From: a virus
Direction: 5' to 3' (one strand)
DNA: 64,000 nucleotides
IMG/VR virus record: IMGVR_UViG_3300030673_000004
Span: 186,001 to 250,000 of that record
A program made the translations under genes and the position numbers. Below are positions 30,297-59,660 of this stretch, piece by piece (position 1 is the stretch's first letter; every line of letters begins with the position of its first letter). The notes below the pieces were generated by a model that was not told where the DNA came from, did not search any database, and saw only the letters and a list, made by a program, of their open reading frames with translations.

Positions 30297-30388
30297 AAAA
30301 CCGCTGATGGGCGCTCCATCAACGGTTAGAGCAGGTACCAAAGTCATCCGATACAAACACTTCGTTCGCACCGTTTTCTTCTGCTCAT
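30297..30388 (-). ncRNA. Probable small regulatory RNA
   Basis: Transcribed leftward from the promoter at 30395-30423. GAGCAG at the 5' end can pair with CTGCTC about 55 bases later, and the 3' end is a 12-bp hairpin, AACCGTTGATGG/CCATCAGCGGTT with one mismatch, followed by TTTTTT, an intrinsic terminator. Total about 90 nt. An ATG lies exactly at +1 but its frame closes after 14 codons. Confidence 0.65.
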
Positions 30389-30394
30389 AAAGAA

Positions 30395-30423
30395 AAGATA
30401 CAATTAATATGTGTCCCTGTCAA
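30395..30423 (-). promoter_or_regulatory. Promoter of the small RNA
   Basis: On the - strand: TTGACA (30423-30418), 17 bp, TATCTT (30400-30395), +1 at 30388. The -35 box overlaps the stop codon of the Lar-like gene. Confidence 0.75.
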
Positions 30424-30704
30424 CCTAATTTAGGTGGTTCCGGACACCAGTTGCTGATTAATGTATCCATCTCACCGTCTAAGAGCTTTCTGGGTAAGAG
30501 AGCCATAGGTCGTGTGTTCCAAGCACTTATTGCATCTTCTGTAGAGTATTTAGCTGGTCCCACACAGTAACAGTCGCAGCATCGTAGGTAAAACAGGTTG
30601 TTCTGCACGGCAAGTAGCCGTGCATGTAAAGATCCGCAGAACGGACATTCTGCAGGTATAACAGATCCTAGAGGCAACTCAGTGATCTCAGGCAACTCTG
30701 GCAT
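30420..30704 (-). CDS. Lar-like (restriction alleviation) zinc protein
   Basis: 94 residues from ATG 30704. ECPFCGS, later RCCDCYCVGPA, then YSTEDAISAWNTRP match the Lar family signature (CPFCG, C..C, then A-I-x-A-W-N-x-R). Lar of the Rac prophage eases type I restriction, but most family members are untested. A solo gene between the two + strand amidoligase genes. Confidence 0.75.
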   Translation of the reverse strand: MPELPEITELPLGSVIPAECPFCGSLHARLLAVQNNLFYLRCCDCYCVGPAKYSTEDAISAWNTRPMALLPRKLLDGEMDTLISNWCPEPPKLG

Positions 30705-30718
30705 CAGAACTTCTTTCT

Positions 30719-30901
30719 GTGGGCACCGTAACAAAAAAATTTCAACGTTTAGCACGCAACCAAGAGCTTGAAAAAAGTTCTCAACTTTTTGGTGCTCTTC
30801 TTGATTGCTTGCCTGCTATAAGTTCCGGTGAGATGAGGCTGGATCCTCTCAAAGAAGTTTTCATATCCAATGACTTAAAAGATGGTGATTGCCATGAGTG
30901 A
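30719..30901 (+). CDS. Possible small protein
   Basis: 60 residues, GTG start, helical, ending inside the start of the next gene (8-base overlap), 14 bases from the divergent Lar-like start. No motif. The overlap typical of this genome is the main support. Confidence 0.35.
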   Translation: MGTVTKKFQRLARNQELEKSSQLFGALLDCLPAISSGEMRLDPLKEVFISNDLKDGDCHE

Positions 30902-32360: not shown

Positions 32361-32371
32361 TAGAAAACCGC

Positions 32372-32400
32372 CTTGACAGGCATACGACTTTTAGTTATTA
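32372..32400 (+). promoter_or_regulatory. Sigma70-like promoter for 32409
   Basis: TTGACA (32372-32377), 17 bp, TATTAT (32395-32400). Predicted +1 at 32407, two bases before ATG. Confidence 0.75.
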
Positions 32401-32408
32401 TTGTCTGT

Positions 32409-34787: not shown

Positions 34788-34840
34788 ACCTCATAGGCTA
34801 CTTTTGTAGTGTTTGAGGCATTCATGGGAGTAGCCTTGGG

Positions 34841-34870
34841 AGCCTTGTCTTGAAAGAGACAGGGCTTTTT
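34841..34870 (+). terminator. Intrinsic terminator after 34787
   Basis: AGCCTTGTCT (34841-34850) pairs with AGACAGGGCT (34857-34866, one G-U), followed by TTTT. Confidence 0.8.
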
Positions 34871-34890
34871 CGTGCTCTGCTCTATGAAAC

Positions 34891-34920
34891 AAAAAGCCGC
34901 TTGTCATAAAGCGGCTTTTT
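34891..34920. terminator. Bidirectional terminator
   Basis: AAAAAGCCGCTT (34891-34902) and AAGCGGCTTTTT (34909-34920), 6-base loop. Serves both the + gene ending at 34787 and the - gene ending at 34942. Confidence 0.92.
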
Positions 34921-34941
34921 GTATTTGGATGCTCTTGCGGC

Positions 34942-35358
34942 TTACTTTATAACTTTGAGTCCCCATGGGCACTTGCACTGCATTCTAACGTTACGGGCCG
35001 CTATCCCAATAAGAGAAAATGGCAGTCTTGGGTGGCTGCATGGGTCTACAGAGCCACCCTTATGCACATAGCAGGGACAGTGGGTACATGTCGCAGGTTG
35101 TGGCCCGATATTGATGCGAGCTTCTCTAGCACGCTCTAACTCATCTAAATCTTGGTGCTTTATGTTCTCTTCAAACCTATCTCGACTGATAGCTTTTTTC
35201 TCTGCTACTGTTTGGCGACGATGCACCGTGTTTGATGGCCTCATGATACGAGAACATTTATCAGAGCAATACTTTTGCTTAGGTGAGTTGGGTACAAAAG
35301 TTTTGCAGCATACGGGGCAAGCTATAGCTTTTTTAGTTTTCCAAAGGGCTGTTGTCAT
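34942..35358 (-). CDS. Zinc-finger protein
   Basis: 138 residues. CPVCCKTFVPNSPKQKYCSDKC is a treble-clef type finger; CTHCPCYVHKGG and MQCKCPWG add more Cys. The middle is a charged helix. Such fingers are common in phage proteins that bind DNA or accompany homing nucleases. No HNH motif is present. The predicted mRNA starts about two bases before ATG. Confidence 0.7.
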   Translation of the reverse strand: MTTALWKTKKAIACPVCCKTFVPNSPKQKYCSDKCSRIMRPSNTVHRRQTVAEKKAISRDRFEENIKHQDLDELERAREARINIGPQPATCTHCPCYVHKGGSVDPCSHPRLPFSLIGIAARNVRMQCKCPWGLKVIK

Positions 35359-35366
35359 ACATACTG

Positions 35367-35395
35367 AATATAGGGAAGAGTGCTCGTTTAGTCAA
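35367..35395 (-). promoter_or_regulatory. Sigma70-like promoter for 35358
   Basis: On the - strand: TTGACT (35395-35390), 17 bp, TATATT (35372-35367), +1 at 35360. Confidence 0.7.
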
Positions 35396-35416
35396 TCAAA
35401 AAGATAACTTCTGAGT

Positions 35417-36886
35417 ATGGATACTGTAATATCTGCTGTTGTGCCCGGCGCAAAGTTAAATAATTTAGCTGTTGACCTCTCTAAGATAACGGTCGGCTTT
35501 GAATTTGAATTTATATCCCCAATTAGTCATCAGAGTTTTGCCGATGTTATGCGTGACACAGACCTAGATTATAAGATTGGTGCCGTAACAAAGGAATACG
35601 CTGGTCACAAAACTAAGTATCCCGGCAAAAATTTATATAGTTTCTGGCACATAACAGGTGATGATTCTATTGATACGGCTGCTGTGTCTGACGATACTAA
35701 GTCCCTTTACGGGATTGAAGTTATCTCACCTGTGTTACCGTTAGCTAAGGCTAAGAAGGCTCTTCTTGATATCGTAGCTATAATTAAACGTGCTGGTGGC
35801 ACTACGAATGAATCTTGTGGTTTGCATATTACTTTTGGACATCCTTTACTGACTACCGATCTGATAAACTTTGATCCTCTAAAGTTCGCTGTATTTATGC
35901 AGGAAGATAAGGTACTGGAACGGTTTGATAGAGAACGAAATGAGTATGCTCAAAATTTCTCATCTAGGATATTAAAGGCTATGTACGAAGAAATGCACGA
36001 GCTAAAGAATCGTGTGTTCCAGAGAGAGCAGCCGAATTTTGAAGAGACGGACGAGGCTAATTACCCTGAAAATTATTATACTATTTTACCTAATGAGGTT
36101 ACCGGGCCTGCTCTTACAGAGGAGAACTTACAAGAGTTCTTGACATCTCTACGAGTACGTCAGCGTTTTGCCCTGTACTCGCACTATCTGAGTATTAATT
36201 TGATAAAACTTCGTAACCACTGTGTGGAGGTTCGTTCTCCTGGTGGTGACTACTTGTCTCAAGATGCTCAAGGGCTTGCTCAGATGGTTCTACATATGGC
36301 TCGGTGCCTTGCAGTAGCTTTGGATCCAACCTTGCTTGAAACGCAATATGTATTAGCTGTTCGTAGAATGCTAAAACAGTATAATGCACCTAAGCAGGCT
36401 ACAGATGCCAAACGTGCCCAGCAAGAATTAAACGTTAATGAGGTGAGTAAAGCATCAGGCCAGACCTCAATCAGCGGTAAGGTTAAGATAGCTGGTCAGT
36501 CTGTACTTGTTACCATAACACATGGTGCTCCAGATAATCCTAGAGCTGATGCTAGTGTTGCTTGGGCTGTTATGGTAGAAGAGAAACATCGTATTGCTCT
36601 ACGCTTATATGTAGATAATTTTGGAATAACTGAAGTTGTGCTGCCCAGTAAGTATACTCTGCAGACATACCCTGTAGTAGCTGATGTCGCTCAAGAGGTA
36701 TCTAACCAGATTATCCGAGCAGCATCTAAAATGGGTCCTGTTCCGGGCTTGGTGAAGATATCACCTAGCATATCTGCTTATAAGAAACTTTTAGCACGTT
36801 TCCCTAAGCTAGCTGCTATAAAAATGAATGTATCTACGTTCCAGTCTCGTATGCGTGAAAGCGGCTTGACGCCTGTGGATGCTTGA
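35417..36886 (+). CDS. Amidoligase-like protein, copy 4
   Basis: 489 residues. VGFEFEF (about residue 27), WHITGDDSI, IEVISPVL, TNESCGLHITFGHP and VEVRSPGGDYL. The amidoligase domain spans roughly residues 25-320; the last 150 residues are a separate alpha/beta part. GATAACTTCTGAGT stands directly before ATG, a motif shared with 40714 and 45336. An identical 30-bp stretch encoding HCVEVRSPGGDY also occurs in copy 3, pointing to recent exchange. Confidence 0.82.
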   Translation: MDTVISAVVPGAKLNNLAVDLSKITVGFEFEFISPISHQSFADVMRDTDLDYKIGAVTKEYAGHKTKYPGKNLYSFWHITGDDSIDTAAVSDDTKSLYGIEVISPVLPLAKAKKALLDIVAIIKRAGGTTNESCGLHITFGHPLLTTDLINFDPLKFAVFMQEDKVLERFDRERNEYAQNFSSRILKAMYEEMHELKNRVFQREQPNFEETDEANYPENYYTILPNEVTGPALTEENLQEFLTSLRVRQRFALYSHYLSINLIKLRNHCVEVRSPGGDYLSQDAQGLAQMVLHMARCLAVALDPTLLETQYVLAVRRMLKQYNAPKQATDAKRAQQELNVNEVSKASGQTSISGKVKIAGQSVLVTITHGAPDNPRADASVAWAVMVEEKHRIALRLYVDNFGITEVVLPSKYTLQTYPVVADVAQEVSNQIIRAASKMGPVPGLVKISPSISAYKKLLARFPKLAAIKMNVSTFQSRMRESGLTPVDA

Positions 36887-36931
36887 TTCTGGACATTACC
36901 AATATTATCAACATAGTAATTGGAGTTTTCA

Positions 36932-37693
36932 ATGAATCATGTATACGGTTGGAAAAAGGATACTAAGGATCCTCGGGATAAGATTTTTAGAGCTACTCCA
37001 CCAACTCAGGGATTACCTGCCTCGGTAGATTTGCGACCCACCTGTCCGCCTGTTTTGGACCAGGGTCAGTTGGGTGCCTGTACGAGTCATGCTTTAGCTA
37101 ATGCGCATTTGTTTGCTCAGATAAAAGAAACTGGTGGGCATGATGCCCTACCATCTAGGCTTTTTATTTATTACAAAGAACGTGAGCTAGAAAATACTAT
37201 TGCAGAAGATTCTGGTGCCCAGATACGCGATGGTGCTAAAGTTCTTGCTTCTTTTGGTGCTCCTCCAGAATCGGACTGGCCCTATGATGTAACTAAGTTT
37301 GCTGTTGCTCCACCTCAGGTGGCTGTAGCGGACGCCACATCGCATAAAGCGCTTCAGTATCATAGCGTGATTCAAACTGAAAATGATATCAAGACAGCTC
37401 TCGCTAGTGGTTTTCCTATTGTTTTCGGTATAATGTTATTTCAGTCGTTTGAATCAGATGTAGTAGCTAAGACAGGTTTGGTTCCTCTGCCAAATCAAGC
37501 AGTTGAACCGTGCCTTGGTGGCCATGCAATTTTGATGGTTGGTTATGATGATACGAAGCGTTTGTTCACTATAATGAACTCTTGGGGTCCTGCTTGGGGT
37601 GATAAGGGATTCTTTTATCTTCCTTATGACTATGTCCTTCGTGCTGACTTAGCTCAAGACTTTTGGGTTATTTCTGTAGTTCAAGAATCTTGA
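36932..37693 (+). CDS. Papain-family (C1) cysteine peptidase
   Basis: 253 residues from ATG 36932 with GGAG 7 bases upstream. SVDLRP, then DQGQLGACTSHA gives oxyanion Gln44 and nucleophile Cys50; GGHAILMVGYDD gives His198; IMNSWGPAWGDKGFFYLPYDYV gives Asn216. The full triad is present, so it should be active. There is no propeptide or signal peptide. It sits between amidoligase copies 4 and 5; a ligase beside a peptidase suggests making and breaking of the same kind of amide bond. Confidence 0.92.
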   Translation: MNHVYGWKKDTKDPRDKIFRATPPTQGLPASVDLRPTCPPVLDQGQLGACTSHALANAHLFAQIKETGGHDALPSRLFIYYKERELENTIAEDSGAQIRDGAKVLASFGAPPESDWPYDVTKFAVAPPQVAVADATSHKALQYHSVIQTENDIKTALASGFPIVFGIMLFQSFESDVVAKTGLVPLPNQAVEPCLGGHAILMVGYDDTKRLFTIMNSWGPAWGDKGFFYLPYDYVLRADLAQDFWVISVVQES

Positions 37694-37719
37694 TCTGCCT
37701 TTAAGCTGCTCTGCGTGTG

Positions 37720-37747
37720 AACCTCTGGATGTAGTCCGGAGGTTTTT
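37720..37747 (+). promoter_or_regulatory. Terminator-like hairpin covering the RBS of 37748
   Basis: AACCTCTGGA (37720-37729) pairs with TCCGGAGGTT (37735-37744, one G-U), followed by TTT. The GGAGG ribosome site of the next gene is inside the 3' arm, so the element can end transcription or block translation. Confidence 0.65.
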
Positions 37748-38200
37748 ATGTTTCTTCTTACGCATGACTATGATTTTGGGGAGCGTGTAAAGCTCTGTCA
37801 TGATGTAGAAGACTATCAAATTTGGATGGTTGTAGCTATTCAAACATCCCTAGACGGTCATCAAGACTACACTTTGGCATCTGGTGACACTGAATACATA
37901 GCTGCTTGCGATGAGTTGGCTCCTATATCCTCGGCACATAAGCCACCCTATTCAACACTTGTTGAGTCTAACTATGAGCTTGGTGCCGCTGTCTATATTG
38001 TTCATGATGAAGAAGCTCATTTATGTACAATTATGCGTATTAACGTTTGTTGGGATAACAGTATCCTTTATCAGGTATTGTGTGGTGCTGATTTTATGTA
38101 TTGGGCAGTGAGTAATGAGCTGTCCGTAGATATGCCATCTGATCCTAGTATACTTGACGATGATAGTGCTTTTGATGACAGTCAAACAACCTCTGAATAA
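37748..38200 (+). CDS. Unknown acidic protein
   Basis: 150 residues. Beta-rich, with VKLCHDVEDYQIWMVVAIQ and a strongly acidic C-terminal tail (DDDSAFDDSQTTSE). Its ribosome site is buried in the hairpin before it. No known family. Confidence 0.7.
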   Translation: MFLLTHDYDFGERVKLCHDVEDYQIWMVVAIQTSLDGHQDYTLASGDTEYIAACDELAPISSAHKPPYSTLVESNYELGAAVYIVHDEEAHLCTIMRINVCWDNSILYQVLCGADFMYWAVSNELSVDMPSDPSILDDDSAFDDSQTTSE

Positions 38201-38227
38201 GGTACGTTTTATCTGATGGGGTGCTAG

Positions 38228-39244
38228 ATGTTCATTCCTAATCATACTGCACAGGATAGTGCAGTCGCTGCTGTTGTCCCAAAGTTGGACCTTTCTCAGG
38301 TTGACTTGTCTAAGTTGACTGTTGGTTTTGAGTTTGAATTTGTATCTCGGTTATCACATAAATCATTTGCTAAGTCTCTTCAGCTTGCTCAACCTACCTG
38401 GAAGATTGGCACTGTTCAAGATAAGCACGGACTTCCTAAGAATGTGAAGGACGTTGAGAAATACTCTGTTTGGAATGTAACTAGTGATGAGACTGTTCAG
38501 GAAGATGCTGAAGACCTTCTATCCTTGACACCTCATTATAGTATTGAGTTGATCTCTCCTGTACTTCAGTTGAATCAAGTTGGTGATATTCTTACACGTG
38601 TTTTTTCCTTGATTAAATCTACTGGTGGTAAAACTAACGAGAGTTGCGGTTTGCACGTTACATTCGGCCACCCCGACATTAATTCTGCGTTAACAAAGTT
38701 TGATCCGTTGAAACTTGGTATTTTTCTCAGAGAGGATAATTTGTTATCTAGATTCGGTAGAACGGATAATGCATTTGCTGATAATTTATCTAAGCGTATT
38801 GTTCAAGCGATCAATACTGAGATAGGATCGTCTGGGGATCAAGTTACTACACTAAAAGGATTGAATGTCTTTGATCATACACCAACATCCATACCCACGA
38901 CTGATAAAACAGGTCCGAAATTAACTGATGCTAATTTAGCTCAGATACTAGTAAGTCCGGCTTTCCGTAAGCGCATGGCTATGGTGGATCATTATACTAA
39001 TATCAGCTTACAATACTTGTCTAAGCATCGTGTAGAGATTCGGGGCATGGGCGGCGATTATTTGAATGTTTCAGTCAAAGAGCTTACAGGACGAGTACTT
39101 CACATGGCCCGCTGCGTGGCTATCGCTCTGATGCCTACGGCTTATGTTCCGCAGTATGTTGCAGCCGTCCGTAGAATGATGCCTGTGTACAAAGCACCTA
39201 AGAAGCCTATGTGGACACCTGCTAAGTCCGACGGGGATGAGTGA
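38228..39244 (+). CDS. Amidoligase-like protein, copy 5 (minimal)
   Basis: 338 residues, the shortest copy and essentially the bare domain. VGFEFEF (about residue 35), WNVTSDETV, IELISPVL, TNESCGLHVTFGHP and VEIRGMGGDYL. The third block has D-E-T-V where the others read D-x-S-I. The N-terminus AAVVPKLDLSQVDLSKL is shared with copies 4 and 6, so these three form a subgroup. Overlaps copy 6 by ATGA-type junction. Confidence 0.82.
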   Translation: MFIPNHTAQDSAVAAVVPKLDLSQVDLSKLTVGFEFEFVSRLSHKSFAKSLQLAQPTWKIGTVQDKHGLPKNVKDVEKYSVWNVTSDETVQEDAEDLLSLTPHYSIELISPVLQLNQVGDILTRVFSLIKSTGGKTNESCGLHVTFGHPDINSALTKFDPLKLGIFLREDNLLSRFGRTDNAFADNLSKRIVQAINTEIGSSGDQVTTLKGLNVFDHTPTSIPTTDKTGPKLTDANLAQILVSPAFRKRMAMVDHYTNISLQYLSKHRVEIRGMGGDYLNVSVKELTGRVLHMARCVAIALMPTAYVPQYVAAVRRMMPVYKAPKKPMWTPAKSDGDE

Positions 39245-40704
39245 TGTTTATTCCTTTTGAAACTACCGCCGCAGTAGTTCCTGGTCTAGATTTTAGTGAT
39301 GTTAACATATCTAGACTTACTGTTGGTTTTGAATTTGAATTCATATCTCCTATTAGTCACAAAAAGTTTGCACAAGCTTTAAGTAAAAAGTACCCAAGTT
39401 GGAAAATTGGTGTGATTTCCAGTATTTACAATGCTCATGAGCAACTTGGTGCTGCTATGTATAATTCTTGGAATATAACAGGGGACGGTTCTATTGACGC
39501 TTCTCCTAATGAATTTGGGATAGAGCTTATTTCTCCTGTATTGAAATTATCCCAAGTATCAAAAATACTTGAATCTGTATTTTCTTTACTCAAGGCGCTT
39601 AAGTGTGAAACAAATGATAGTTGTGGCTTGCATGTTACCTTTGGTCATCCGAAGATTACAGCAAATTTAACATATTTTAATCCTCTTAAGTTCGGTGTAT
39701 TCTTGCAGGAGGATAAGTTATTAGCTCGTTTTGGTAGAACGGATAACGGTTTTTCCTTAAATACGTCAAAAGAGATATTGTATGAGTTACACGAAGAGAT
39801 GTTCCGAGATGACGTTACTAGAGTTGGTACGTCTATTATCTCACCCTGGTCACGAACACAATATGATAAAGAAACTAGCCGGACAGGTCCTAAGGCGACT
39901 GATGCGAACTTAGCTAAAGTTTTATTAGATCCTAGGCTGCGTCGTAGGTTAATCCCAATAGATCATTACCAAAACATAAGTTTATCTAAAATTAAAAATA
40001 ATCTAGTTGAAGTTCGTGGTATGGGTGGTAACTATTTAGCACAGAGTACTACAACACTTGTAAATATTGTTAAACACCTTGCTCGTTGTCTTGTGATCTC
40101 TTTATCGCCAACTGCATATCAGGCTCAATACATACTAGCTGTTAAACGGATGCTTAACGAGTACAACCCGAAAGACTCTGAGGTGGTTAAGCCGCAGGAT
40201 TTAATACCTGACGATATAGACGCAGAATATCCTACGTTGGATCTCTGGTCATCTGATGGTGGTCGTTTAATTCTATTTGGAACTAAGGAGACTCCCAGTA
40301 GAGGAGACTTCAAATTAAGTACAAATAACAACAGTAGTATTCATTTACATAATACTACTTTATATATAAAACTAAGCATAGATAGCATTAAAGACGGGGT
40401 ATCTTCTGATTTTGATTTTGAGCGTGTAGTTACTCAGGAGTTAGATTGGATCATAAGTATCTGTGTTAAGCTGAAAGCATCAATTAACAAACATACATCT
40501 ATTCCAAGTTTGACTAAATTTGCTATTACCACAGACAATATTAAGAAAATAGAACACTACTTTCCTTGGGCAGTGCATCTTGAATTGCCCCCAGATATCT
40601 TACAGATAGCTTATATAGGTTTTATACAGTCTTCTGATTTTCGTACCTGCTCCATTAAAAATCGACAATATTTTATGCGTGAGTGGAAAGCCAAAGTCCG
40701 GTAA
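39241..40704 (+). CDS. Amidoligase-like protein, copy 6
   Basis: 487 residues. N-terminus TTAAVVPGLDFSDVNIS, then VGFEFEF, WNITGDGSI, IELISPVL, TNDSCGLHVTFGHP and VEVRGMGGNYL. The last 150 residues are an added alpha/beta region (LDLWSSDGGRLILFG onward). Start codon overlaps the stop of copy 5. Closest to copy 5 in sequence. Confidence 0.82.
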   Translation: MMFIPFETTAAVVPGLDFSDVNISRLTVGFEFEFISPISHKKFAQALSKKYPSWKIGVISSIYNAHEQLGAAMYNSWNITGDGSIDASPNEFGIELISPVLKLSQVSKILESVFSLLKALKCETNDSCGLHVTFGHPKITANLTYFNPLKFGVFLQEDKLLARFGRTDNGFSLNTSKEILYELHEEMFRDDVTRVGTSIISPWSRTQYDKETSRTGPKATDANLAKVLLDPRLRRRLIPIDHYQNISLSKIKNNLVEVRGMGGNYLAQSTTTLVNIVKHLARCLVISLSPTAYQAQYILAVKRMLNEYNPKDSEVVKPQDLIPDDIDAEYPTLDLWSSDGGRLILFGTKETPSRGDFKLSTNNNSSIHLHNTTLYIKLSIDSIKDGVSSDFDFERVVTQELDWIISICVKLKASINKHTSIPSLTKFAITTDNIKKIEHYFPWAVHLELPPDILQIAYIGFIQSSDFRTCSIKNRQYFMREWKAKVR

Positions 40705-45725: not shown

Positions 45726-47340
45726 TACTGCTGCTGTGTCTAGTATTTTATCTAAGCATAATGTACCTTATATTGTTGCTTATGCCACTGAAATGTCTAA
45801 GATACGTGACATTTCGGTTGCTGGCCCTTCCGAGTATGCCTCCAATACAACATCCCTTATCTCTGTGCTGCATACTTGCTGTGTTCCTCATATTTGTGTT
45901 GAGGCTAAGTATAGTAGGGAGAATGATTTCCTTCGTGGTGCTTTGGCAGAGAGAGACCTAAAGCATGATGTATATCTTATTCATGAGTGGGGTCCTGCTG
46001 CTCTTTATTTTAAGTACTGTCAAGATAACAATAAAGCTGAGTATCAAAAACTTGTAGATGCTTCTGGTACTGCATCTCCAGATAGAAATGATCTGTTTGA
46101 TGCAATTTTAGAAGATAAGTATGTGCCTTCCCCTGGTGCTGTTGAGGAGTTTCTTAAGAATACATCGGAAGATCGCTTGCGGCAAGCGATCCGGGAAGAT
46201 GACGAAAGTGATTCATCTGTAAATTTTAGTTTGAATAATCACGGTAAGCTTCTCCCTAGAAACACATGGGTAGGTCACTTCTGCTCAGATGCTCGTTCTA
46301 TTGCATCTCATGGTTTTATGCATGGTGAACCTGACGCTTACTCCTTAGGATTAACAAGACTCAAGTCAGATGAGGCTCGATATGGACATACTGGGTATAA
46401 TTTTGGCTTTGATGTTAAGACTATGCGCAAGAATTGGCAGCGAGGTGTTGCAAAATATGGCAAGGAGCTTGTATTATTTCAAACTTCAGGTGTGTCTGCT
46501 TATCACTCTGGTGATGAGGAGGACCAAATCATATTCTGGGGTCCTCATATAGAGTGGGTTGTGCCTATTGTTCCAGCTCCTGTAGAGAATTACGAGTATC
46601 AGTCTGATGACGATTATGCCGTACTCGCAACTGATGGTTCGTATGCTTTTCGCACGTCATCCGAAGTGCCTAATTCTGCTACTTATGGATTTAATGCTGA
46701 AAAGAATTGCCGTGCTTGTGTCGAGTGGGTTGTTAAAAATATCAATGCTTATCGCAAGTCACTTATTTGGTACCTACCGAAGAATACTGCGAATACTGCG
46801 ACTGACTCAGGTTCTGCCCTGGCTTCTAACGATATGCTACATAATTCTATTGGGATTACTGCGGCTAATCACAGGATCCCCTCTTTAGAGGATCTAGACG
46901 AGGCAGAGCTGGCAGAGTTTGAACGGTGGTCGCTTGCTGGGTTGATTAGAGATGAAGTAGGAAAGCCGCTTTTACTGTTTCACGGTGGGGACGAAGAACT
47001 GCGCGACGATGATTGGTGGACACCGGATCTTAGAAATACTCGTGAGTTCGGACACATTACGCACTGTGCCTACTTGCGCATGAATAATCCCGCACATGAA
47101 GAAGACTTAGTTGCTATATACAATGAGTTGTTTGCTACAGAGTATGACTGGGACGATTTATTAGATGTGATGGATACAACGCCTGCCGATTTTCTAGAGC
47201 AGAATCAGTTATACTTTGAGGCTGTCCGCAAAAATCATGATGGCTTTATCATTTTTGATAATTCCCTAGAGCACCCAGGACTGGCATACCGTGTGTTTGA
47301 TGTAGACACAGATGCTTGGGTCTTGGGTACAGTTTCTTAG
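45718..47340 (+). CDS. Tagged protein with two ADP-ribosyltransferase-like regions
   Basis: 540 residues. The recurrent tag occurs twice: SSILSKHNVPYIVAYATE (residues 7-24) and SVLHTCCVPHICVEAK (about 48-63). Residues about 180-290 (TWVGHFCSDARSIASHGFM, GYNFGFDV, YHSGDEEDQIIFWGP) resemble ART-type domains with His187. Residues about 412-535 (VGKPLLLFHGG with His422, HCAYLRMNNP, NHDGFIIFDN) match ADP-ribosyltransferases of phage polyvalent proteins. ARTs move ADP-ribose from NAD to proteins or nucleic acids. With packaging tags, this could be an injected effector such as T4 Alt. Confidence 0.68.
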   Translation: MSSTAAVSSILSKHNVPYIVAYATEMSKIRDISVAGPSEYASNTTSLISVLHTCCVPHICVEAKYSRENDFLRGALAERDLKHDVYLIHEWGPAALYFKYCQDNNKAEYQKLVDASGTASPDRNDLFDAILEDKYVPSPGAVEEFLKNTSEDRLRQAIREDDESDSSVNFSLNNHGKLLPRNTWVGHFCSDARSIASHGFMHGEPDAYSLGLTRLKSDEARYGHTGYNFGFDVKTMRKNWQRGVAKYGKELVLFQTSGVSAYHSGDEEDQIIFWGPHIEWVVPIVPAPVENYEYQSDDDYAVLATDGSYAFRTSSEVPNSATYGFNAEKNCRACVEWVVKNINAYRKSLIWYLPKNTANTATDSGSALASNDMLHNSIGITAANHRIPSLEDLDEAELAEFERWSLAGLIRDEVGKPLLLFHGGDEELRDDDWWTPDLRNTREFGHITHCAYLRMNNPAHEEDLVAIYNELFATEYDWDDLLDVMDTTPADFLEQNQLYFEAVRKNHDGFIIFDNSLEHPGLAYRVFDVDTDAWVLGTVS

Positions 47341-47819
47341 CTAAGCAGTTCAGAGAGCAGCTTGTTGACAAACTTCATGTCGGCCTTGCCCTTGAGTTGC
47401 GGACCAAGTTCCTCCATGACAGCGCCCTTGAGTTGCGGACCAAGTTCCTTCATGACAGCACCCATCAGTTTCTTGTTCTTCTCCATTCCTGCGAACAGAT
47501 TGTCCACAGTAGCAACAACCAAAGCACGAACAGCTTCTTCAGACATCTGCTGAGGAAGAAATTCCTTGAGTACGCTGATCTGGTAAGCTTCCTGTTCTGC
47601 CAAATCAGTACGACCTGCAGCGGTGTACTGACTAAGAGAATCTTCGCGCTGCTTGACGCCCTTAATCAGGGCATTCATTACATCATCCCTGTTGACATCC
47701 TTGCGGCATATTCCCTTGATCTCGCTGATGAGTGTACGCAGAATAAGGACACGGGCTGTATCCTTATTCTTAGCCGCGTTGATCATTTCTTCATAGATAG
47801 TATTAAACAACGTCTTCAC
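47337..47819 (-). CDS. GatB/YqeY-domain protein
   Basis: 160 residues. IYEEMINAAKNKDTARVLILRTLISEIK, then KQREDSLSQYTAAGRTDLAEQEAYQISVLKEFLP and GKADMKFVNKLL follow the YqeY family from end to end. The family is linked to tRNA-dependent amidation (GatB tail) but YqeY's own role is unclear. A 12-residue unit, GAVM(K/E)ELGPQLK, is duplicated in tandem near the C-terminus. Ends opposite the stop of the ART-like gene. Confidence 0.88.
   Translation of the reverse strand: MKTLFNTIYEEMINAAKNKDTARVLILRTLISEIKGICRKDVNRDDVMNALIKGVKQREDSLSQYTAAGRTDLAEQEAYQISVLKEFLPQQMSEEAVRALVVATVDNLFAGMEKNKKLMGAVMKELGPQLKGAVMEELGPQLKGKADMKFVNKLLSELLS
47404..47466. repeat. 36-bp tandem duplication inside the YqeY-like gene
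   Basis: CCTTGAGTTGCGGACCAAG and its continuation up to CATGACAGC recur 36 bases apart with one or two differences, giving the in-frame duplication of 12 residues. Confidence 0.8.
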
Positions 47820-49366: not shown

Positions 49367-49394
49367 TTGACATTTTTGGCTTTGCTTGTATATT
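49367..49394 (+). promoter_or_regulatory. Promoter in the CRISPR leader
   Basis: TTGACA (49367-49372), 16-bp spacer, TATATT (49389-49394). It directs transcription rightward into the array, starting about 70 bases before the first repeat. Confidence 0.75.
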
Positions 49395-49468: not shown

Positions 49469-50013
49469 GTAGCACTTTGTACCCATGTGTGAATTGAAAC
49501 AAGTATGACCATGCATGCCGACAGCTTGAGGCGGGTAGCACTTTGTACCCATGTGTGAATTGAAACCGAGTATACCCTCGATCCCACCCAAGCTCCTTCG
49601 TAGCACTTTGTACCCATGTGTGAATTGAAACGAGGTATTGTCTTAATAAGGCATTAGCTAATGGGTAGCACTTTGTACCCATGTGTGAATTGAAACTCGC
49701 TGACAGGCTTAACGACGTTGGATCGCCCGTAGCATTTTGTACCCATGTGTGAATTGAAACTTCTCGACAGCCGCTCCGACAATTCCTGACAAGTAGCACT
49801 TTGCATCCCTGTGTGACTTGAAACAACGCTAGGTCGTGCGAGAGGCTTTGGCCAGAGTAGCATTTTGTACCCATGTGTGAATTGAAACATGGCGGCAGAT
49901 TAGTTGGCGGAGAAATTTGGGTAGTACTTTGTACCCCTGTGTGGATTGAAACTCTTACAGTTCGCATATCTGGATTGACATCCAGGAGCTTGTACCCATG
50001 TGTGAATTGAAAC
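49469..50013 (+). CRISPR. CRISPR array, 9 repeats and 8 spacers
   Basis: 32-bp repeats start GTAGCACTTTG and end TGTGTGAATTGAAAC, at 49469, 49535, 49600, 49665, 49729, 49793, 49857, 49921 and 49982. Spacers are 34, 33, 33, 32, 32, 32, 32 and 29 bp. The first four repeats are identical; repeats 5 and 7 differ by one base, 6 by four, 8 by three, and the last is degenerate over its first eight bases. Decay at the right end and the GAAAC 3' end both point to a leader on the left and rightward transcription. No cas1 or cas2 is in the window. Open frames through the array are artefacts. Confidence 0.98.
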
Positions 50014-50064: not shown

Positions 50065-50092
50065 TTGACAAACAAATTTTTTGAACTATATT
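50065..50092 (+). promoter_or_regulatory. Promoter of the tracrRNA-like RNA
   Basis: TTGACA (50065-50070), 16-bp AT-rich spacer, TATATT (50087-50092); +1 near 50099. Confidence 0.8.
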
Positions 50093-50098
50093 TTGTTC

Positions 50099-50282
50099 TA
50101 CAAGTCGAGCACAGCGACTCTAAATCAATGCCGGGGGGTATTTCAGGTCCTCGTTAACAGTCCGAAGAAGAACTCACTGGAGGGCTTCGCTGCTAGGGTA
50201 ACCTAGCGAAACGGCTGCCAAATTCACACACAAGTCCCTGCCTAGGTGCGAAATAAAACCTAGGCAGGGATCTTTTTGTTTT
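50099..50282 (+). ncRNA. tracrRNA-like RNA with anti-repeat
   Basis: About 180 nt from the promoter at 50065-50092 to a strong terminator. AATTCACACA (50221-50230) is an exact complement of TGTGTGAATT in the CRISPR repeat, and CAAGT (50231-50235) can pair with ACTTTG of the repeat with one bulge. Upstream are AGTCG/CGACT (50103/50115) and GCTAGG-GTAA-CCTAGC (50192-50207) hairpins. The 3' end is TCCCTGCCTAGG/CCTAGGCAGGGA then TCTTTTT. An anti-repeat close to the 3' end after a structured 5' body recalls the tracrRNAs of compact type V systems such as Cas12f. Confidence 0.8.
50235..50282 (+). terminator. Intrinsic terminator of the tracrRNA-like RNA
   Basis: Perfect 12-bp stem TCCCTGCCTAGG (50235-50246) and CCTAGGCAGGGA (50259-50270), then TCTTTTTGTTTT. 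It may also be part of the guide scaffold. Confidence 0.92.
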
Positions 50283-50308
50283 ACCCTATTTGAACTTGGA
50301 GATGAACG

Positions 50309-52225
50309 TTGGCTATTCGCAAAAAGACTCCAATCTTGGGCGCTGCTCCGGGTGATGTGCGAACGACTAAGTCCTATAAGTTTGAGCTGTATCCAACAAA
50401 AGATCAGAGAGACAAGTTGTTTACTTTTCTTTGGGCAACTCGGTGCATGTACAATGATGCGCTTGAATGGTTGTTTACGGATAAGATGCTGTTTGATATG
50501 GGTGACATTGACGTGTGGCTAGAGCATCGCGTACTGGCTCTTCTTAGTGATACTGAGAAGAAACAAGCTATTCTTACTTTGGAGTTGGAAGAGCTGCAAA
50601 AACGGCCAGGCACACAATGTAAACAAAATAAGATTCTGGATAGCCTAGAGAAGATGCGTGGCAAACATGATACGTTTGTTTTAGGTTTAGCAAAAATGCG
50701 CACAGAATATGAGAAAAAGATCTGGCCACGTCTCTCTAGAGAGGACATGACTGTTCTTGCTGGTGCTATTCGGCGCTTGAATAAGTCACACCCTGCTTAT
50801 GACGCAAGTTTGGGAATTCCAGCGACTACATTTAATTCGACAGTAGCCAAACGCCTTAGCCAAGCACAGAAAAGCATTTACACGTCAGATCGTCTTTCTA
50901 AGAAAGACGGCAACTTTCTTGTTTCTCGTAGACGTGAATCTACTAAAACACACATTGTTACGTACACAGATCCGGAATCTGTTCAAAAGGTAGAGAACTT
51001 CCCGAATTTCAGATCTCGTACCTCTAGCTTTATTTTAGAGGCGCAGAAACCTTCCGCATTTATCAATGGTAAACTAGGTAATCTTAAGATTACCCCTGCA
51101 CTTACTGTTCAATTTTGTGCTTATGTTGACATTCTCACGGGATCAGCCAAAGAAATTACACAGGCTATCTCAGCTAGGCGTGTTATTGGGATGTCCGTAG
51201 GTCAACAGATTACTGTAGCAGTTGATGGTACTGGGCGTTGGTGGACTAGTATTACTATTGATACCAACCATAGTCCTGTGTTGTATCCTGTTGACATTAA
51301 TAAAACTATGGCACTTGATTTTCGTCCAGCCGCTATTACAACTAGTACCGGATTCCGGATGATGCGGAGTCTTGATGCTCTTCGTTCTGTAACTAGCTAT
51401 CCTAATTGTGCCGCTCTGGCTAAGAAGTATGAAAAGAATCAAAACGCTATTGTCATGAAGCAGCGTGAGGTTTCTCGTAAGTATGAGCTGCATAAGCGAG
51501 CTAGCCAGACGTTCAAGACTACACACGTTTGTCCTATTTGTGGCGCAGTTGCCTCAGACGAAGCTGTTGCTGATCTTAACACTTTTAAGTGTTCTTGTGG
51601 GTTCTCCGTGAGGATGAAATCTAAGAATCATCGTAAAGCCAAGTTTGAGCTATCTATGTTGCATGCTCGTAGTGCTGGTATACTGACAAACTTAAGACGG
51701 CACATTGTGCATTCCTGGGTAGCATCAGAAGCAACTACATTTGTCATTCAAGATATTCCTTTGAACGAAGGTTTCAAGGCAAAGGCAAAGACAAAGAAAG
51801 ATGGGGAGAAGGACAAAGATAAGAAGCCTCGCAGATGGCGTGGCTGCGCTATCCGACGGCGCAATATCAACAGGTTCACACATCAGCTAGCTGCTGGAAC
51901 ATTGCGTAGCATGCTTGTTGCGTCTGCTGCTACTATGCAGAAGAACGTGATCGTGGTCTCTTCTGACTATGATCCTCTGCACACCTGTAGCTGCGGTCAT
52001 GTTATTTCTACTGGTGCTACAATGTGTGATGATGTTGTTGCTAATGCACCTACCCGTCTACTGTATATTCCGTTTGATCACCCAAAACTTGTTCTTGGAG
52101 CTAAGTCAGGAACGGATGCTTTACGCAGATTTGGTGAAGCATTAACTCAGAAAGAAGCCCGTAAGCAAGCTAAGTTACTGCGAAAGGCTGCGTTGACTTC
52201 TGGCCAGGGGATTGCTGTTGATTAA
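50309..52225 (+). CDS. Compact type V (TnpB/Cas12-like) effector with altered RuvC site
   Basis: 638 residues. TTG start with GGAG 7 bases upstream. The N-terminus (KSYKFELYPTKDQRDKLFTF, then RCMYNDALEWL) is the OrfB/TnpB N-terminal helix pattern. RuvC-I Asp is D337 (MALDFRPAAITTSTG). RuvC-II reads FVIQDIPL, with Q481 where Glu is expected (VIEDL). RuvC-III Asp is D575 (MCDDVVANA). A zinc ribbon (C408, C411, C428, C430) lies between RuvC-I and -II, not the usual place, and the normal target-binding ribbon is reduced to C560, C562 and C573. Probably guide-RNA-dependent DNA binding with weak or no cleavage. Array, tracr-like RNA and effector are contiguous. Confidence 0.88.
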   Translation: MAIRKKTPILGAAPGDVRTTKSYKFELYPTKDQRDKLFTFLWATRCMYNDALEWLFTDKMLFDMGDIDVWLEHRVLALLSDTEKKQAILTLELEELQKRPGTQCKQNKILDSLEKMRGKHDTFVLGLAKMRTEYEKKIWPRLSREDMTVLAGAIRRLNKSHPAYDASLGIPATTFNSTVAKRLSQAQKSIYTSDRLSKKDGNFLVSRRRESTKTHIVTYTDPESVQKVENFPNFRSRTSSFILEAQKPSAFINGKLGNLKITPALTVQFCAYVDILTGSAKEITQAISARRVIGMSVGQQITVAVDGTGRWWTSITIDTNHSPVLYPVDINKTMALDFRPAAITTSTGFRMMRSLDALRSVTSYPNCAALAKKYEKNQNAIVMKQREVSRKYELHKRASQTFKTTHVCPICGAVASDEAVADLNTFKCSCGFSVRMKSKNHRKAKFELSMLHARSAGILTNLRRHIVHSWVASEATTFVIQDIPLNEGFKAKAKTKKDGEKDKDKKPRRWRGCAIRRRNINRFTHQLAAGTLRSMLVASAATMQKNVIVVSSDYDPLHTCSCGHVISTGATMCDDVVANAPTRLLYIPFDHPKLVLGAKSGTDALRRFGEALTQKEARKQAKLLRKAALTSGQGIAVD

Positions 52226-52226
52226 A

Positions 52227-52706
52227 GTGAAAAAGCTTCGCAAGTATCAGGAAGAGACACTTACGTGGGCTTTCCATGTACTGGCTAATCCGCAGCGTCC
52301 ACATTTGTTGATTGGGCAGCCACCGGGTGCAGGAAAGTCTATGCAGGCCCATTTGATTAGTCGGTTTGCTCTGGAATGTCCTAGTCTAGGGATCAAGAAA
52401 ATTCTGGTACTGACACCATTGATAGCAATCCGTTTTGGGTTTGCACGTGATCGGGACTACGGCGTAACGTATACGTCTGACTCGTTTAGCTGGCTTCAGA
52501 ACGGTGGCGTTCGGCCACTAGACTTTCAGACAACAGATGGTGCTCTTCTAGCTATGCTGCAGACAGATCGTGTGGGTGCCTATATTGCATGTCACGCATC
52601 TTTGGCTAACGCAAAAGCTGAAGATGCTCATGCTTTTGAGCAGTTGGACGACTGCTCAGATTTACTTATTGTAGTTGATGAAGCACATCACCTTAATGCT
52701 GAATAA
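52227..52706 (+). CDS. SF2 helicase, N-terminal part (ends at DEAH)
   Basis: 159 residues from GTG 52227, two bases after the effector stop; TTG codons slightly upstream that overlap it are alternatives. KKLRKYQEETLTW is a Q-motif-like start, LIGQPPGAGKS the Walker A, ILVLTPLIAI motif Ia, and LLIVVDEAHHLNAE the DEAH Walker B, where a TAA stops the frame. The rest of the helicase continues at once in the +1 frame. Operon position directly after the CRISPR effector suggests joint work. Confidence 0.8.
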   Translation: MKKLRKYQEETLTWAFHVLANPQRPHLLIGQPPGAGKSMQAHLISRFALECPSLGIKKILVLTPLIAIRFGFARDRDYGVTYTSDSFSWLQNGGVRPLDFQTTDGALLAMLQTDRVGAYIACHASLANAKAEDAHAFEQLDDCSDLLIVVDEAHHLNAE

Positions 52707-54399
52707 CCTGACGAGTGTCGTACAGTGTGCTGTAGATAAAGGTGCTCGAATGCTGCTACTGACAGCAACGCCGTTTGTATCTACCGGTTCGTGGGAGTTC
52801 ATCTTAAAGAATAAGACAAAGTCTCGTATACGTCCGCTTAGTCAGCATATTGAAGAAGGCTTTGCACCTCGCCTGGAAAATGAGATCATCTATAGCGATA
52901 TCTGGCCTATGGAGAACGGACTCCCTTCGCCTGAGTTTGTGGCACGTAAAACGATTGAGACGTTTTTAGCAAATGATCGAGTCAAGAGTCTTGTTGTTGT
53001 ACCTGCTACACCGTCATGCCGGGCTTGCGGTACAACGGAGGAATACGTCGATAAGATCATAGACGAGTGCTACAAACTTGTGCCACGTACAGATATTTCT
53101 TTGTTGAATACTCTGGGCGATTCTAAGACAGATATTATCACCAAAGAGTGCCGTGGTGATACCTATCACGATATTCAATTCACGCCAACCACAGGCAAAT
53201 ACCGTGAGGGTGTGGATGATCCCAGGCTAGCCTGTATTCAATACTTTGTTCGTCCGAAGTCCTCTATTCTTAGCGTTCAGATTCCGGGTAGGACTCTTCG
53301 CGAGAAACCTGAAGGATATCTGCCTGTGCAGTTTAGATTTAAGTCTAAACAGATATTCCATACTTCTTCGGCTGCTGGCGCCCTGATAGAATTTTCCTGT
53401 GATGTTCTAAAGTACATTCTCCGAACAGAGAATCCTTTAGCTGCTGCTACTCTGCCACCAATCAAAGCTATGATCGGCGAACTGCGTATGCGCAGGCGGC
53501 AAGCAGACAATTCAGGTGATATTAAATTAGCACAAAGTTATGCTGAATTTGCGGATGCCTTGGAAGATGACGCTGAAACAACTATGTGTGAGGCTCTTGC
53601 CGACTTAGATGCTCAAGTTACGCTGGCCTATGAGACTCAGCAAGGAGTAACTCTTCCTAAGCTAATTCAGCAGTATGGAATGGACTCAAACGTTGTTAAA
53701 TTGGCTATGTATCAACAGCTTAAGAATCATCCTGATAAGTTATTGGAGCACATGGAGTCTATCATTGAACGGCGTACACGAAATCACAAAGGCGGAAAGC
53801 ATAAGCCGGGAAGTACGCCGTCATTTGAGATTGCCGACTTTTACCTTCATATGCTTGCAGAGCAGTATGCTGATGAAGAAATAGATCAGTTTGTGACAAC
53901 TATTGATAGTCGCGTTTTGACCGAGTGGTCTGATCGCTGGGAGAAACTTAGAGACAGGACAGATCTGGAAAAAGCTGACGGTCTAGTTCAGGCTTTCAGC
54001 ACGGGTAGCCTTCGTCGTGACGATCATATCAACTACCCATCGTTTGAAGAGTTTCGGCTGCGTAATCTGCTCAGTACGGTGCTGCCCGCAGTTAAACGTC
54101 CCAGTTTAGAGGCTCGTGCGCTGTTAGATGCTGCTGGGTTGTCTAGTCGCATTTTTGCTGATAACTGGAATGATCCTCTTGTTTGTAACAATGGTACCTT
54201 GCTAACTCTTCAGCGTTTTGTACCTTTGGCATCTTGGGTGAAGGCGCATGGAAGGCTACCCCAGATTTCTTCTGATCTAGAAGAGAGGTCCGCCTATAAA
54301 TTCTACAGAATCTATAAGGACAAAATGACTGTAGTTGCTTCTCAGCACACTGCTAGTATCATACAGGAACTACATATAGGAGAAGTCTTGGATGCCTAA
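52696..54399 (+). CDS. SF2 helicase, C-terminal part
   Basis: 567 residues from ATG 52696 (ATG 52678 and TTG 52675 are alternatives). The start overlaps the upstream stop by 11 bases. LLLTATPF is motif III of the same helicase; SLVVVPATP, then YREGVDDPRLACIQYFVRP and QIPGRTLREK are motifs IV-VI with the arginine finger. About 330 further residues are helical. CRACG gives a minor Cys pair. Either the two parts are separate subunits, or a +1 shift (GAA-T-AAC) joins them. Confidence 0.8.
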   Translation: MLNNLTSVVQCAVDKGARMLLLTATPFVSTGSWEFILKNKTKSRIRPLSQHIEEGFAPRLENEIIYSDIWPMENGLPSPEFVARKTIETFLANDRVKSLVVVPATPSCRACGTTEEYVDKIIDECYKLVPRTDISLLNTLGDSKTDIITKECRGDTYHDIQFTPTTGKYREGVDDPRLACIQYFVRPKSSILSVQIPGRTLREKPEGYLPVQFRFKSKQIFHTSSAAGALIEFSCDVLKYILRTENPLAAATLPPIKAMIGELRMRRRQADNSGDIKLAQSYAEFADALEDDAETTMCEALADLDAQVTLAYETQQGVTLPKLIQQYGMDSNVVKLAMYQQLKNHPDKLLEHMESIIERRTRNHKGGKHKPGSTPSFEIADFYLHMLAEQYADEEIDQFVTTIDSRVLTEWSDRWEKLRDRTDLEKADGLVQAFSTGSLRRDDHINYPSFEEFRLRNLLSTVLPAVKRPSLEARALLDAAGLSSRIFADNWNDPLVCNNGTLLTLQRFVPLASWVKAHGRLPQISSDLEERSAYKFYRIYKDKMTVVASQHTASIIQELHIGEVLDA

Positions 54400-55039
54400 G
54401 ACTAAGACAACGTCACCTGAGTTTGTTTATGCTTCTCATGGCAAGCAGGAATACCGCAAGTATGTTCAGGGCCAATTCGATATTCATTCTCTTGGTGATT
54501 TCCATGGTAAGTGGCTTGAGCCCATTGGGGCAGGTGCTTTAACATTTGATTCATTACTAGCAACCGGGCGTATAGATGAAGCTAGCCTGATTGGGTTAGA
54601 CAAGAACCCTAGGGATATTGCAGGATCACGTCAGAACATCGAGCAGTGCCGCACTAAATTCCCAAAAGCTCAGTTCTTCTGTCAAGATTGGCGTGAGTTC
54701 TGTCTACAGTATCGCGATCCAATTAGGTACATCGTTTACGATTTGTATACATCTACTTTTGGGCCGGAGCTTCTAAGCAATTTGCAGGCTATTTTTAGTT
54801 TAGTGCAGCAGAGCTTGAAGTACCATGGTCAAGTTCTTCTCGCTGTAACGGCAGATTTGCAGGCAACTATGCGACATAAGAAAGACGTACAAGACTTTGA
54901 GCATCTGTTGAAACGTGTATTTGAATCACCTACTATTCGGCATAGCCGAATATCCTGTAAAGACATGTTTCTATATACCAGCAATCGCGATCAGATGGGT
55001 GTTTTGATCATTGAATTCTTTAACAATACTGTTCCTTAG
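54392..55039 (+). CDS. Methyltransferase-fold protein
   Basis: 215 residues. KWLEPIGAGALTFDSLL resembles SAM motif I (E-x-x-G-x-G), SLIGLDKN places an Asp after strand 2, FFCQDWREF marks strand 3, and YIVYDLYTS stands where catalytic D-P-P-Y would be in DNA adenine methylases. So the fold is likely, the catalytic type not. Start overlaps the helicase end by 8 bases, making it the fourth gene of the effector operon. Confidence 0.6.
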   Translation: MPKTKTTSPEFVYASHGKQEYRKYVQGQFDIHSLGDFHGKWLEPIGAGALTFDSLLATGRIDEASLIGLDKNPRDIAGSRQNIEQCRTKFPKAQFFCQDWREFCLQYRDPIRYIVYDLYTSTFGPELLSNLQAIFSLVQQSLKYHGQVLLAVTADLQATMRHKKDVQDFEHLLKRVFESPTIRHSRISCKDMFLYTSNRDQMGVLIIEFFNNTVP

Positions 55040-58561: not shown

Positions 58562-58659
58562 CCCTATTCGCCGCACATCTTGCGGTGATTAGAGCTGCTA
58601 TTCACCGCACATCTCGTACAGTCTAAGTTTTAAGGAATAATTATTACTTGGCTTGTATG

Positions 58660-58688
58660 TTGACAAAATTACATATGTGAAGTATATT
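58660..58688 (+). promoter_or_regulatory. Sigma70-like promoter for 58695
   Basis: TTGACA (58660-58665), 17 bp, TATATT (58683-58688); +1 at 58695, the A of ATG. Confidence 0.82.
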
Positions 58689-58694
58689 TGTACT

Positions 58695-59660
58695 ATGAAA
58701 CTTGAAGACATTGGCTTTTACACTCTATCTGATGATCGTTGCGCTGCAGCGTCGGCTACATCTCGTATGATGCGGGGTGAGTTGATTTTGACCAGTGCTT
58801 ATAATTTCAAGTGTCCTTATTGTCGGGGGCAGCGTAAGGATCTCAAAAAGCATCTTACCTATGAAGAGGCTGCTCGCGTAGTTGATTTGTGGGCGGCGGA
58901 TAATTTGAAAAGTATTCGTTTCTCTGGTGGAGAACCAACTGTGTGGAAAGACCTCACAGCATTGGTCGCACATGCTAAAGAAGTTGGAATTGAGAATATT
59001 GCCATCTCTACAAATGGATCATCTTCTTACGAAACTTACGTTGAATTGATCGCTGCTGGAGTTAATGACTTTAGTATCTCCCTAGATGCTTGCTGTGCTG
59101 CTTATGGTGACAAGATGGCCGGTGGCATTGAAGGTGCTTGGGAACATGTCATTGAAAACATTAAAGCTTTAGCCAAGCTCACTTACGTTACTGTTGGAGT
59201 TGTAGTAACAGAAGAAACAGTAACTGAACTTAAGTCCACTGTTGAATTTGCTGACTCTCTAGGGGTGGCAGATATTCGAATCATTTCTGCAGCACAATAT
59301 AACGAGTTGTTGGAGGTATCAAAAACAGTACCTGTTGAAATTCGTGATCGTCATAAAATTCTCAAATATCGTATTGAAAATGCGATTAACGGAATCAATG
59401 TCCGGGGTATTGGTGAACACGATTCACATAAATGCTGGATTGCCTTGGATGACATGGTTGTCATGGGTAATCATCATTTCCCTTGTGTGATTCACATGCG
59501 AGAACTGGGTGATCCTATTGGGGAAGTAGGACCACATATGCGCAAAGAGCGTGAGGAGTGGGTTGCTCGGCATGATACGCACAAAGATCCTATCTGCCAA
59601 AAGAATTGCTTGGACTGTATTGTGATGTACAATAACAAGTATGAGCAGACGCACAGATAA
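58695..59660 (+). CDS. Radical SAM protein with Tyr in place of the first cluster Cys
   Basis: 321 residues from ATG 58695, at the predicted +1. SAYNFKCPYCRG gives Y36-x3-C40-x2-C43 where Cys-x3-Cys-x2-Cys is expected. IRFSGGEPTVWKDL (GGE motif), ISTNGSS and DFSISLDA follow as in genuine members. The C-terminal part has CWIALDD, HFPCVIHMRELGDPIGEV and CQKNCLDC, the layout of a SPASM or twitch auxiliary-cluster domain. It may be an enzyme with an unusual ligand or a degenerate one. Substrate unknown. Confidence 0.85.
   Translation: MKLEDIGFYTLSDDRCAAASATSRMMRGELILTSAYNFKCPYCRGQRKDLKKHLTYEEAARVVDLWAADNLKSIRFSGGEPTVWKDLTALVAHAKEVGIENIAISTNGSSSYETYVELIAAGVNDFSISLDACCAAYGDKMAGGIEGAWEHVIENIKALAKLTYVTVGVVVTEETVTELKSTVEFADSLGVADIRIISAAQYNELLEVSKTVPVEIRDRHKILKYRIENAINGINVRGIGEHDSHKCWIALDDMVVMGNHHFPCVIHMRELGDPIGEVGPHMRKEREEWVARHDTHKDPICQKNCLDCIVMYNNKYEQTHR

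What the first reader, a model, noticed from the sequence alone, without database searches (positions are those of the whole stretch)
50065..50282. Separately promoted tracrRNA with a split anti-repeat next to the array
Between array and effector lies a complete small transcription unit: promoter (50065-50092), structured body, anti-repeat and terminator (50235-50282). AATTCACACA is exactly complementary to TGTGTGAATT in the repeat, and the adjoining CAAGT can pair with ACTTTG, leaving about six repeat bases looped out. Most phage-encoded compact type V systems reported so far (Cas12j/CasPhi, for example) lack a tracrRNA, so a tracr-dependent phage system is notable.
Basis: seen in the sequence. 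Interest (0 to 1): 0.85.

Follow-up and report, generated by a model that had tools for sequence, protein, structure and literature searches.

The report
Phage Cas12-like system with tracrRNA-like RNA
A giant bacterial virus carries its own small CRISPR system, and next to the CRISPR array sits a convincing gene for the helper RNA (tracrRNA) that such systems can need; the partner protein is a lone, TnpB-like Cas12 whose DNA-cutting site looks altered, so it may block DNA rather than cut it.

Summary
The sequence unit is real. In a 375.5-kb jumbo-phage record, between a 9-repeat CRISPR array and a 638-aa TnpB/Cas12-like gene, lies a perfect copy of the phage's own promoter, a structured ~178-nt body, a 10-nt exact anti-repeat and the strongest intrinsic terminator on the + strand of the window. 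The anti-repeat is unlikely by chance (p about 0.005-0.017 for this gap). I found a better second element: UUUCA in a hairpin loop (50141-50145) pairs with the repeat's 3' UGAAA (p about 0.02, post hoc). That is the long-plus-short anti-repeat (pseudoknot) layout published for V-B, V-F and V-G guides. The tracrRNA reading is therefore likely (about 0.8), but no relative was found, so covariation could not be tested. The novelty premise is overstated: phage-borne V-F and V-U systems were reported in 2020. What is unusual is the effector: no sequence relatives found, RuvC-II Glu replaced by Gln, an extra zinc ribbon before RuvC-II, and no promoter of its own after the tracr terminator. Best guess: a V-F-like, tracr-guided effector, possibly acting by binding rather than cutting.

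The parts
49367..49394 (+). array promoter, TTGACA-N16-TATATT, upstream of the first repeat
49469..50013 (+). CRISPR array: 9 repeats of 32 nt (GTAGCACTTTGTACCCATGTGTGAATTGAAAC), 8 spacers of 29-34 nt, repeats decaying towards the right (leader-distal) end
   Evidence: no second array in the 375-kb record
50065..50092 (+). promoter of the tracrRNA candidate, TTGACA-N16-TATATT (phage-wide motif); nearest recognisable promoter upstream of the effector
50100..50277 (+). tracrRNA candidate, about 178 nt (start inferred from the promoter, end from the terminator)
   Evidence: fold -65 kcal/mol for 50099-50279, z -4.4, much of it from the terminator; body alone z -1.05, 3-way junction z -3.1
50132..50153 (+). 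hairpin whose hexaloop AUUUCA (50140-50145) presents the short anti-repeat UUUCA (50141-50145), complementary to UGAAA at the 3' end of the repeat
   Evidence: only complement of 5 nt or more to the repeat tail in the body; chance 1.6-2.3% for hairpin loops
50158..50217 (+). three-way junction directly before the long anti-repeat
   Evidence: 50155-50220: -25.1 kcal/mol, z -3.1, 0 of 200 shuffles as stable
50221..50230 (+). long anti-repeat AATTCACACA, exact complement of repeat positions 18-27
50235..50279 (+). intrinsic terminator: perfect 13-bp stem (50235-50270) and T-rich tail
   Evidence: (z -7.7)
50309..52225 (+). TnpB/Cas12f-like effector, 638 aa, TTG start with GGAG at 50298-50301; RuvC-I Asp337, RuvC-II Gln481 in place of Glu, extra zinc ribbon at residues about 405-431
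52212..54399 (+). helicase-like gene overlapping the effector's end (ResIII motor part 52212-52706, second part 52675-54399, apparently one gene split by a frame change)
54392..55039 (+). weakly methyltransferase-like gene, overlapping the preceding one

Best explanation
50065-50282 is the gene of a tracrRNA of about 178 nt. It pairs with the array's pre-crRNA through a 10-bp long anti-repeat (50221-50230) and probably through a 4-5-bp short anti-repeat in a hairpin loop (50141-50145) that binds the repeat end next to the spacer. The resulting dual guide would load the TnpB/Cas12f-like effector encoded directly downstream. Shown: sequence complementarities, promoter, terminator, gene order, effector homology. 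Inferred: transcription, duplex formation, loading. Further inference, weaker (about 0.45): because RuvC-II Glu is Gln and a second zinc ribbon is inserted, the complex binds DNA and blocks transcription or replication of rival elements rather than cutting them. Also inferred: effector mRNA is made by read-through of the tracr terminator, which keeps tracrRNA in excess over protein.
For: Perfect phage-type promoter and the strongest + strand terminator in the window bracket the unit. 10-nt exact anti-repeat, chance 0.5-1.7% in this gap. Co-folding gives the 10-bp helix at its expected place while keeping the body fold and the terminator. Independent short anti-repeat in a hairpin loop, chance about 2%, matching the long plus short anti-repeat pseudoknot reported for V-B, V-F and V-G guides (PMC11246509). 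No open reading frame of note in the gap. Length and position as in V-F loci (PMC8548392). Effector: OrfB HTH over cut-off, TNB ribbon, PADLOC Cas12f 3.4e-7. Glu-to-Gln seen in a profile alignment built from 12 TnpBs.
Against: No relative in any collection searched, so no covariation or conservation. Duplex energy alone is unremarkable. The body without the terminator is only slightly more stable than shuffles (z -1.05). The short anti-repeat shares U27 with the long one and was found post hoc. Gln481 is one base change from Glu in a single metagenomic sequence, and the RuvC-III Asp assignment is uncertain.
Confidence: 0.66

Rival explanations
1. A genuine tracrRNA-guided system in which the effector still cuts: a neighbouring acid or a shifted motif supplies the second RuvC metal ligand and Gln481 is tolerated.
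For: RuvC-I Asp337 is kept and an Asp (482) follows Gln481; Cas12 active sites can be very divergent (PMC12607003).
Against: Gln replaces the RuvC-II Glu in the profile alignment, and the same phage's second TnpB (IS607-like) keeps a canonical D-E-D set.
Confidence: 0.3
2. The unit is a 5' leader with an attenuator for the effector-helicase operon; complementarity to the repeat is incidental or serves autoregulation.
For: No promoter-like site was reported between the terminator and the effector start, so effector transcription probably runs through it.
Against: A long and a short anti-repeat at the expected ends of the RNA are unlikely together by chance. The leader and tracrRNA roles are not exclusive.
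Confidence: 0.12
3. A decaying, non-functional CRISPR locus.
For: No cas1 in the 375-kb record; spacers match nothing found; distal repeats are mutated; catalytic Glu lost.
Against: Promoters, terminator, anti-repeats and an intact 638-codon frame are preserved; lack of acquisition genes is normal in phage systems (PMC7162821); repeat decay at the distal end is ordinary.
Confidence: 0.12
4. An unrelated phage small RNA whose 10-nt match to the repeat is chance.
For: 10-nt complements to the repeat occur at three other places on the + strand of the 64 kb and duplex energy is ordinary.
Against: Gap-restricted chance is 0.5-1.7%, with an independent second anti-repeat and the right position and size.
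Confidence: 0.06

Closest known systems
Type V-F (Cas12f1) loci, e.g. SpCas12f1 and AsCas12f1
   Same: Compact TnpB-like effector; tracrRNA of comparable length (153 and 169 nt there, about 178 nt here) between array and effector; long plus short anti-repeat scheme (PMC8548392, PMC11246509).
   Different: Only weak profile similarity, below curated cut-offs; RuvC-II Glu is Gln; extra zinc ribbon before RuvC-II; on a jumbo phage; order array-tracr-effector with the terminator just upstream of the effector.
Type V-M (Cas12m)
   Same: Compact (about 600 aa), altered RuvC site, acts by DNA binding; carried by mobile elements (PMC11013384, PMC11656645).
   Different: Cas12m uses a crRNA alone, tracrRNA ruled out (PMC11013384); a tracrRNA candidate is present here.
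Phage type V systems: Cas12j/CasPhi and the phage V-F and V-U variants
   Same: Encoded by huge phages without acquisition genes (PMC7162821).
   Different: CasPhi needs no tracrRNA (own knowledge); PADLOC hits here are Cas12f and Cas12u models only.
TldR (TnpB-like nuclease-dead repressors of prophages)
   Same: TnpB family, RuvC inactivated, phage-encoded (PMC13418256).
   Different: TldR uses a guide RNA beside its gene, not a CRISPR array with a tracrRNA.

Membership tests
tracrRNA of a class 2 CRISPR system | RNA gene near the array with an anti-repeat complementary to the repeat | tested here: met
   10-nt exact anti-repeat at 50221-50230, chance 0.5-1.7%
tracrRNA of a class 2 CRISPR system | own promoter and terminator | tested here: met
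tracrRNA of a class 2 CRISPR system | transcribed, pairs with crRNA, needed for effector function | not testable with these tools
   needs RNA and protein experiments
tracrRNA of a class 2 CRISPR system | anti-repeat covaries with the repeat in relatives | tested here: inconclusive
   no relatives found
Type V-F | tracrRNA with long and short repeat/anti-repeat duplexes (pseudoknot) | tested here: inconclusive
   long 10 bp met; short 4-5 bp in a loop, chance about 2%, post hoc; criterion from PMC11246509
Type V-F | tracrRNA between cas12f and the array, about 150-170 nt | tested here: met
   about 178 nt by promoter and terminator; criterion from PMC8548392
Type V-F | effector belongs to the Cas12f clade | tested here: inconclusive
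   PADLOC Cas12f 3.4e-7, Cas12u2 1.5e-5; Pfam Cas12f1-like_TNB 22.7 bits, below its 26.3 cut-off; NCBIfam TnpB 26 bits against a cut-off of 100. No tree was built
Type V-F | intact RuvC D-E-D nuclease site | tested here: not met
   Glu replaced by Gln481; single sequence
Type V-M | no tracrRNA | tested here: not met
   tracrRNA candidate present
Type V-J (CasPhi) | Cas12j effector, no tracrRNA | tested here: not met
   no Cas12j model among the PADLOC hits; tracrRNA candidate present
Type V-K (CAST) | adjacent Tn7-like transposition genes | tested here: not met
   the immediate neighbours scanned are NT5C-like, helicase-like and methyltransferase-like
TldR | guide RNA without a CRISPR array | tested here: not met
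   9-repeat array present

The most novel reading that the evidence does not exclude
An orphan branch of TnpB-derived Cas12 in a jumbo phage that combines a tracrRNA with a naturally nuclease-dead effector. It would act as a phage-borne RNA-guided repressor of competitors, with effector synthesis set by read-through of the tracrRNA terminator.
Probability: 0.3. Interest if true: 0.75.

Novelty: new variant of a known kind. Interest (0 to 1): 0.52.

Why it matters
If right, it adds a tracr-using effector with no detected sequence relatives to the phage type V repertoire, and a test case for CRISPR interference by binding rather than cutting in a phage. The dual use of one promoter for tracrRNA and effector would be a simple way to keep guide RNA in excess. 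The system is small enough (array, 178-nt RNA, one protein) to test directly in laboratory E. coli.

Tried and rejected
Split anti-repeat CAAGT/ACTTTG as a stable helix: rejected on energy. Relatives of the effector: single-protein scans of viral and species-genome contigs, tblastn of phage and plasmid records, 50 portal-related viral records, and degenerate-motif scans all gave none. The motif scans used alignments padded with synthetic conservative variants that I made only to force degenerate patterns; they are not real sequences. Repeat scan of viral contigs: none. Adjacent helicase part: no relatives in viral contigs or phages. Portal in viral contigs, single protein: none; with an alignment 147. 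Spacer targets: none convincing in phages, plasmids or the own record (a 23-nt match of spacer 8 to Fusobacterium phages at E 0.09 was dismissed). AlphaFold from the single sequence failed (mean pLDDT 36.9), so no fold search was run. Rfam: nothing meaningful.

Full report
Setting. The window is bases 186,001-250,000 of a 375,537-base linear virus record. A portal gene at 4701-6845 shows it is a tailed jumbo phage, about 33-35% identical in the portal to PaBG, BcepSauron and related phages of Gram-negative hosts. No tRNAs or Rfam families were found in the window.

Observation. The array (49469-50013) has nine 32-nt repeats, spacers of 29-34 nt and mutated repeats at its right end. It has its own promoter TTGACA-N16-TATATT at 49367. 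The candidate unit has the same promoter at 50065. Eleven 12-of-12 copies of this motif (spacing 16-17) occur in the window, several directly before open reading frames, against 0-3 sites of 11/12 or better in shuffles of one strand. It is therefore the phage's own promoter type, not a stray match. The terminator 50235-50279 has a 13-bp perfect stem and is the only one of that quality on the + strand. No open reading frame of note lies in the gap.

Anti-repeat. AATTCACACA (50221-50230) pairs exactly with repeat positions 18-27. Window-wide, a 10-nt complement is not rare (five hits on the + strand, two of them parts of one 11-nt match), and its energy is ordinary (rank about 150 of 25,348). 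Restricted to the 295-nt gap where a tracrRNA would be expected, chance is 0.5% (shuffled gap), 1.7% (shuffled repeat) or 0.7% (17 of 2502 other windows). Co-folding places the 10-bp helix and leaves the body and terminator intact. It could at most be a bulged extension held by protein.

A better second element. Published V-B, V-F and V-G guides have a long repeat/anti-repeat stem and a short 5-7-bp one, in a pseudoknot; in BhCas12b the short one lies between the long stem and the guide (PMC11246509). Looking for this, I found one complement of 5 nt or more to the repeat tail UUGAAAC in the whole body: UUUCA at 50141-50145, inside the hexaloop of hairpin 50132-50153. Chance is 1.6-2.3% for hairpin loops and 4.6% for any unpaired stretch. 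The hairpin has a probability of about 0.65 in the ensemble. The element shares base U27 with the long stem, so the strict length is 4 bp plus one contested pair. It was found after the fact, but in answer to a published criterion.

Effector. The 638-aa protein (TTG start, GGAG ribosome site) has the OrfB helix-turn-helix over its cut-off and a TNB zinc ribbon just below it; its best defence-library hit is Cas12f, 3.4e-7. A profile from 12 TnpB proteins aligns RuvC-I Asp337 and puts Gln481 (TFVIQDIPL) at the RuvC-II glutamate (viviEdLnv). The ribbon that resembles the TNB of a solved TnpB (8iaz) lies at 405-431, inside the helical part before RuvC-II, where the TnpB profile has a gap; a reduced ribbon (CSCGH...MC) sits at the usual place. 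The RuvC-III Asp is likely 573 or 574 but not firmly aligned. A nuclease-impaired enzyme is thus plausible but rests on one residue in one sequence. No structure could be predicted.

Operon logic. No promoter-like site on the + strand was reported between 50095 and the effector start, and only about 30 nt separate the terminator from the start codon. The effector and the overlapping helicase-like and methyltransferase-like genes probably depend on read-through from 50065 or from the array promoter. This is inference; a promoter of another type would not be seen.

Relatives. These searches are limited to exact or degenerate peptide seeds or tblastn, and metagenome contigs were closed, so the effector is an orphan only at that sensitivity. 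There is no cas1 and no second array in the record, and no spacer target was found.

Comparison and novelty. Size and place of the RNA match V-F (153- and 169-nt tracrRNAs between cas12f1 and array, PMC8548392). V-M shares the altered RuvC but has no tracrRNA (PMC11013384). Phage V-F and V-U systems are known (PMC7162821), and landfill viruses carry many more V-U, V-F and Cas14-like effectors, some without clear RuvC motifs (PMC12607003). A tracr-using phage type V system is therefore not new in kind. The new points are the orphan effector, the combination of tracrRNA with a substituted RuvC-II, the displaced zinc ribbon, and the read-through arrangement.

Verdict. tracrRNA: about 0.8. V-F-like two-part pairing: about 0.6. 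Binding without cutting: about 0.45.

Noticed in passing
L118:829-2690 (G000:C1:4328-6189, outside the window): The same phage carries an IS607-like pair: a serine-recombinase-like gene overlapping a 425-aa TnpB with a canonical D-E-D set, not closely related to the CRISPR effector.
   Followed up: partly
window 52212-54399: The helicase-like gene downstream of the effector is split into two overlapping frames at 52675-52706, right after the DEAHH motif; either a sequencing error, a mutation or a programmed frameshift.
   Followed up: no
window 27939-40704: Five paralogous genes with Amidoligase_2 domains (27939, 32373, 35417, 38228, 39241) interleaved with a papain-like peptidase gene (36920).
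   Followed up: partly
window 1080-1916 and 58653-59660: Two radical-SAM genes in the phage.
   Followed up: no
window, many sites (e.g. 256, 20216, 57128, 62722): A phage-wide promoter motif TTGACA-N17-TATATT, often followed at once by a start codon; some upstream regions share TACAAAATTAATG in the spacer.
   Followed up: partly
window 47388-47459: 36-nt tandem duplication (97% identical) inside a gene read on the - strand (47337-47819).
   Followed up: no
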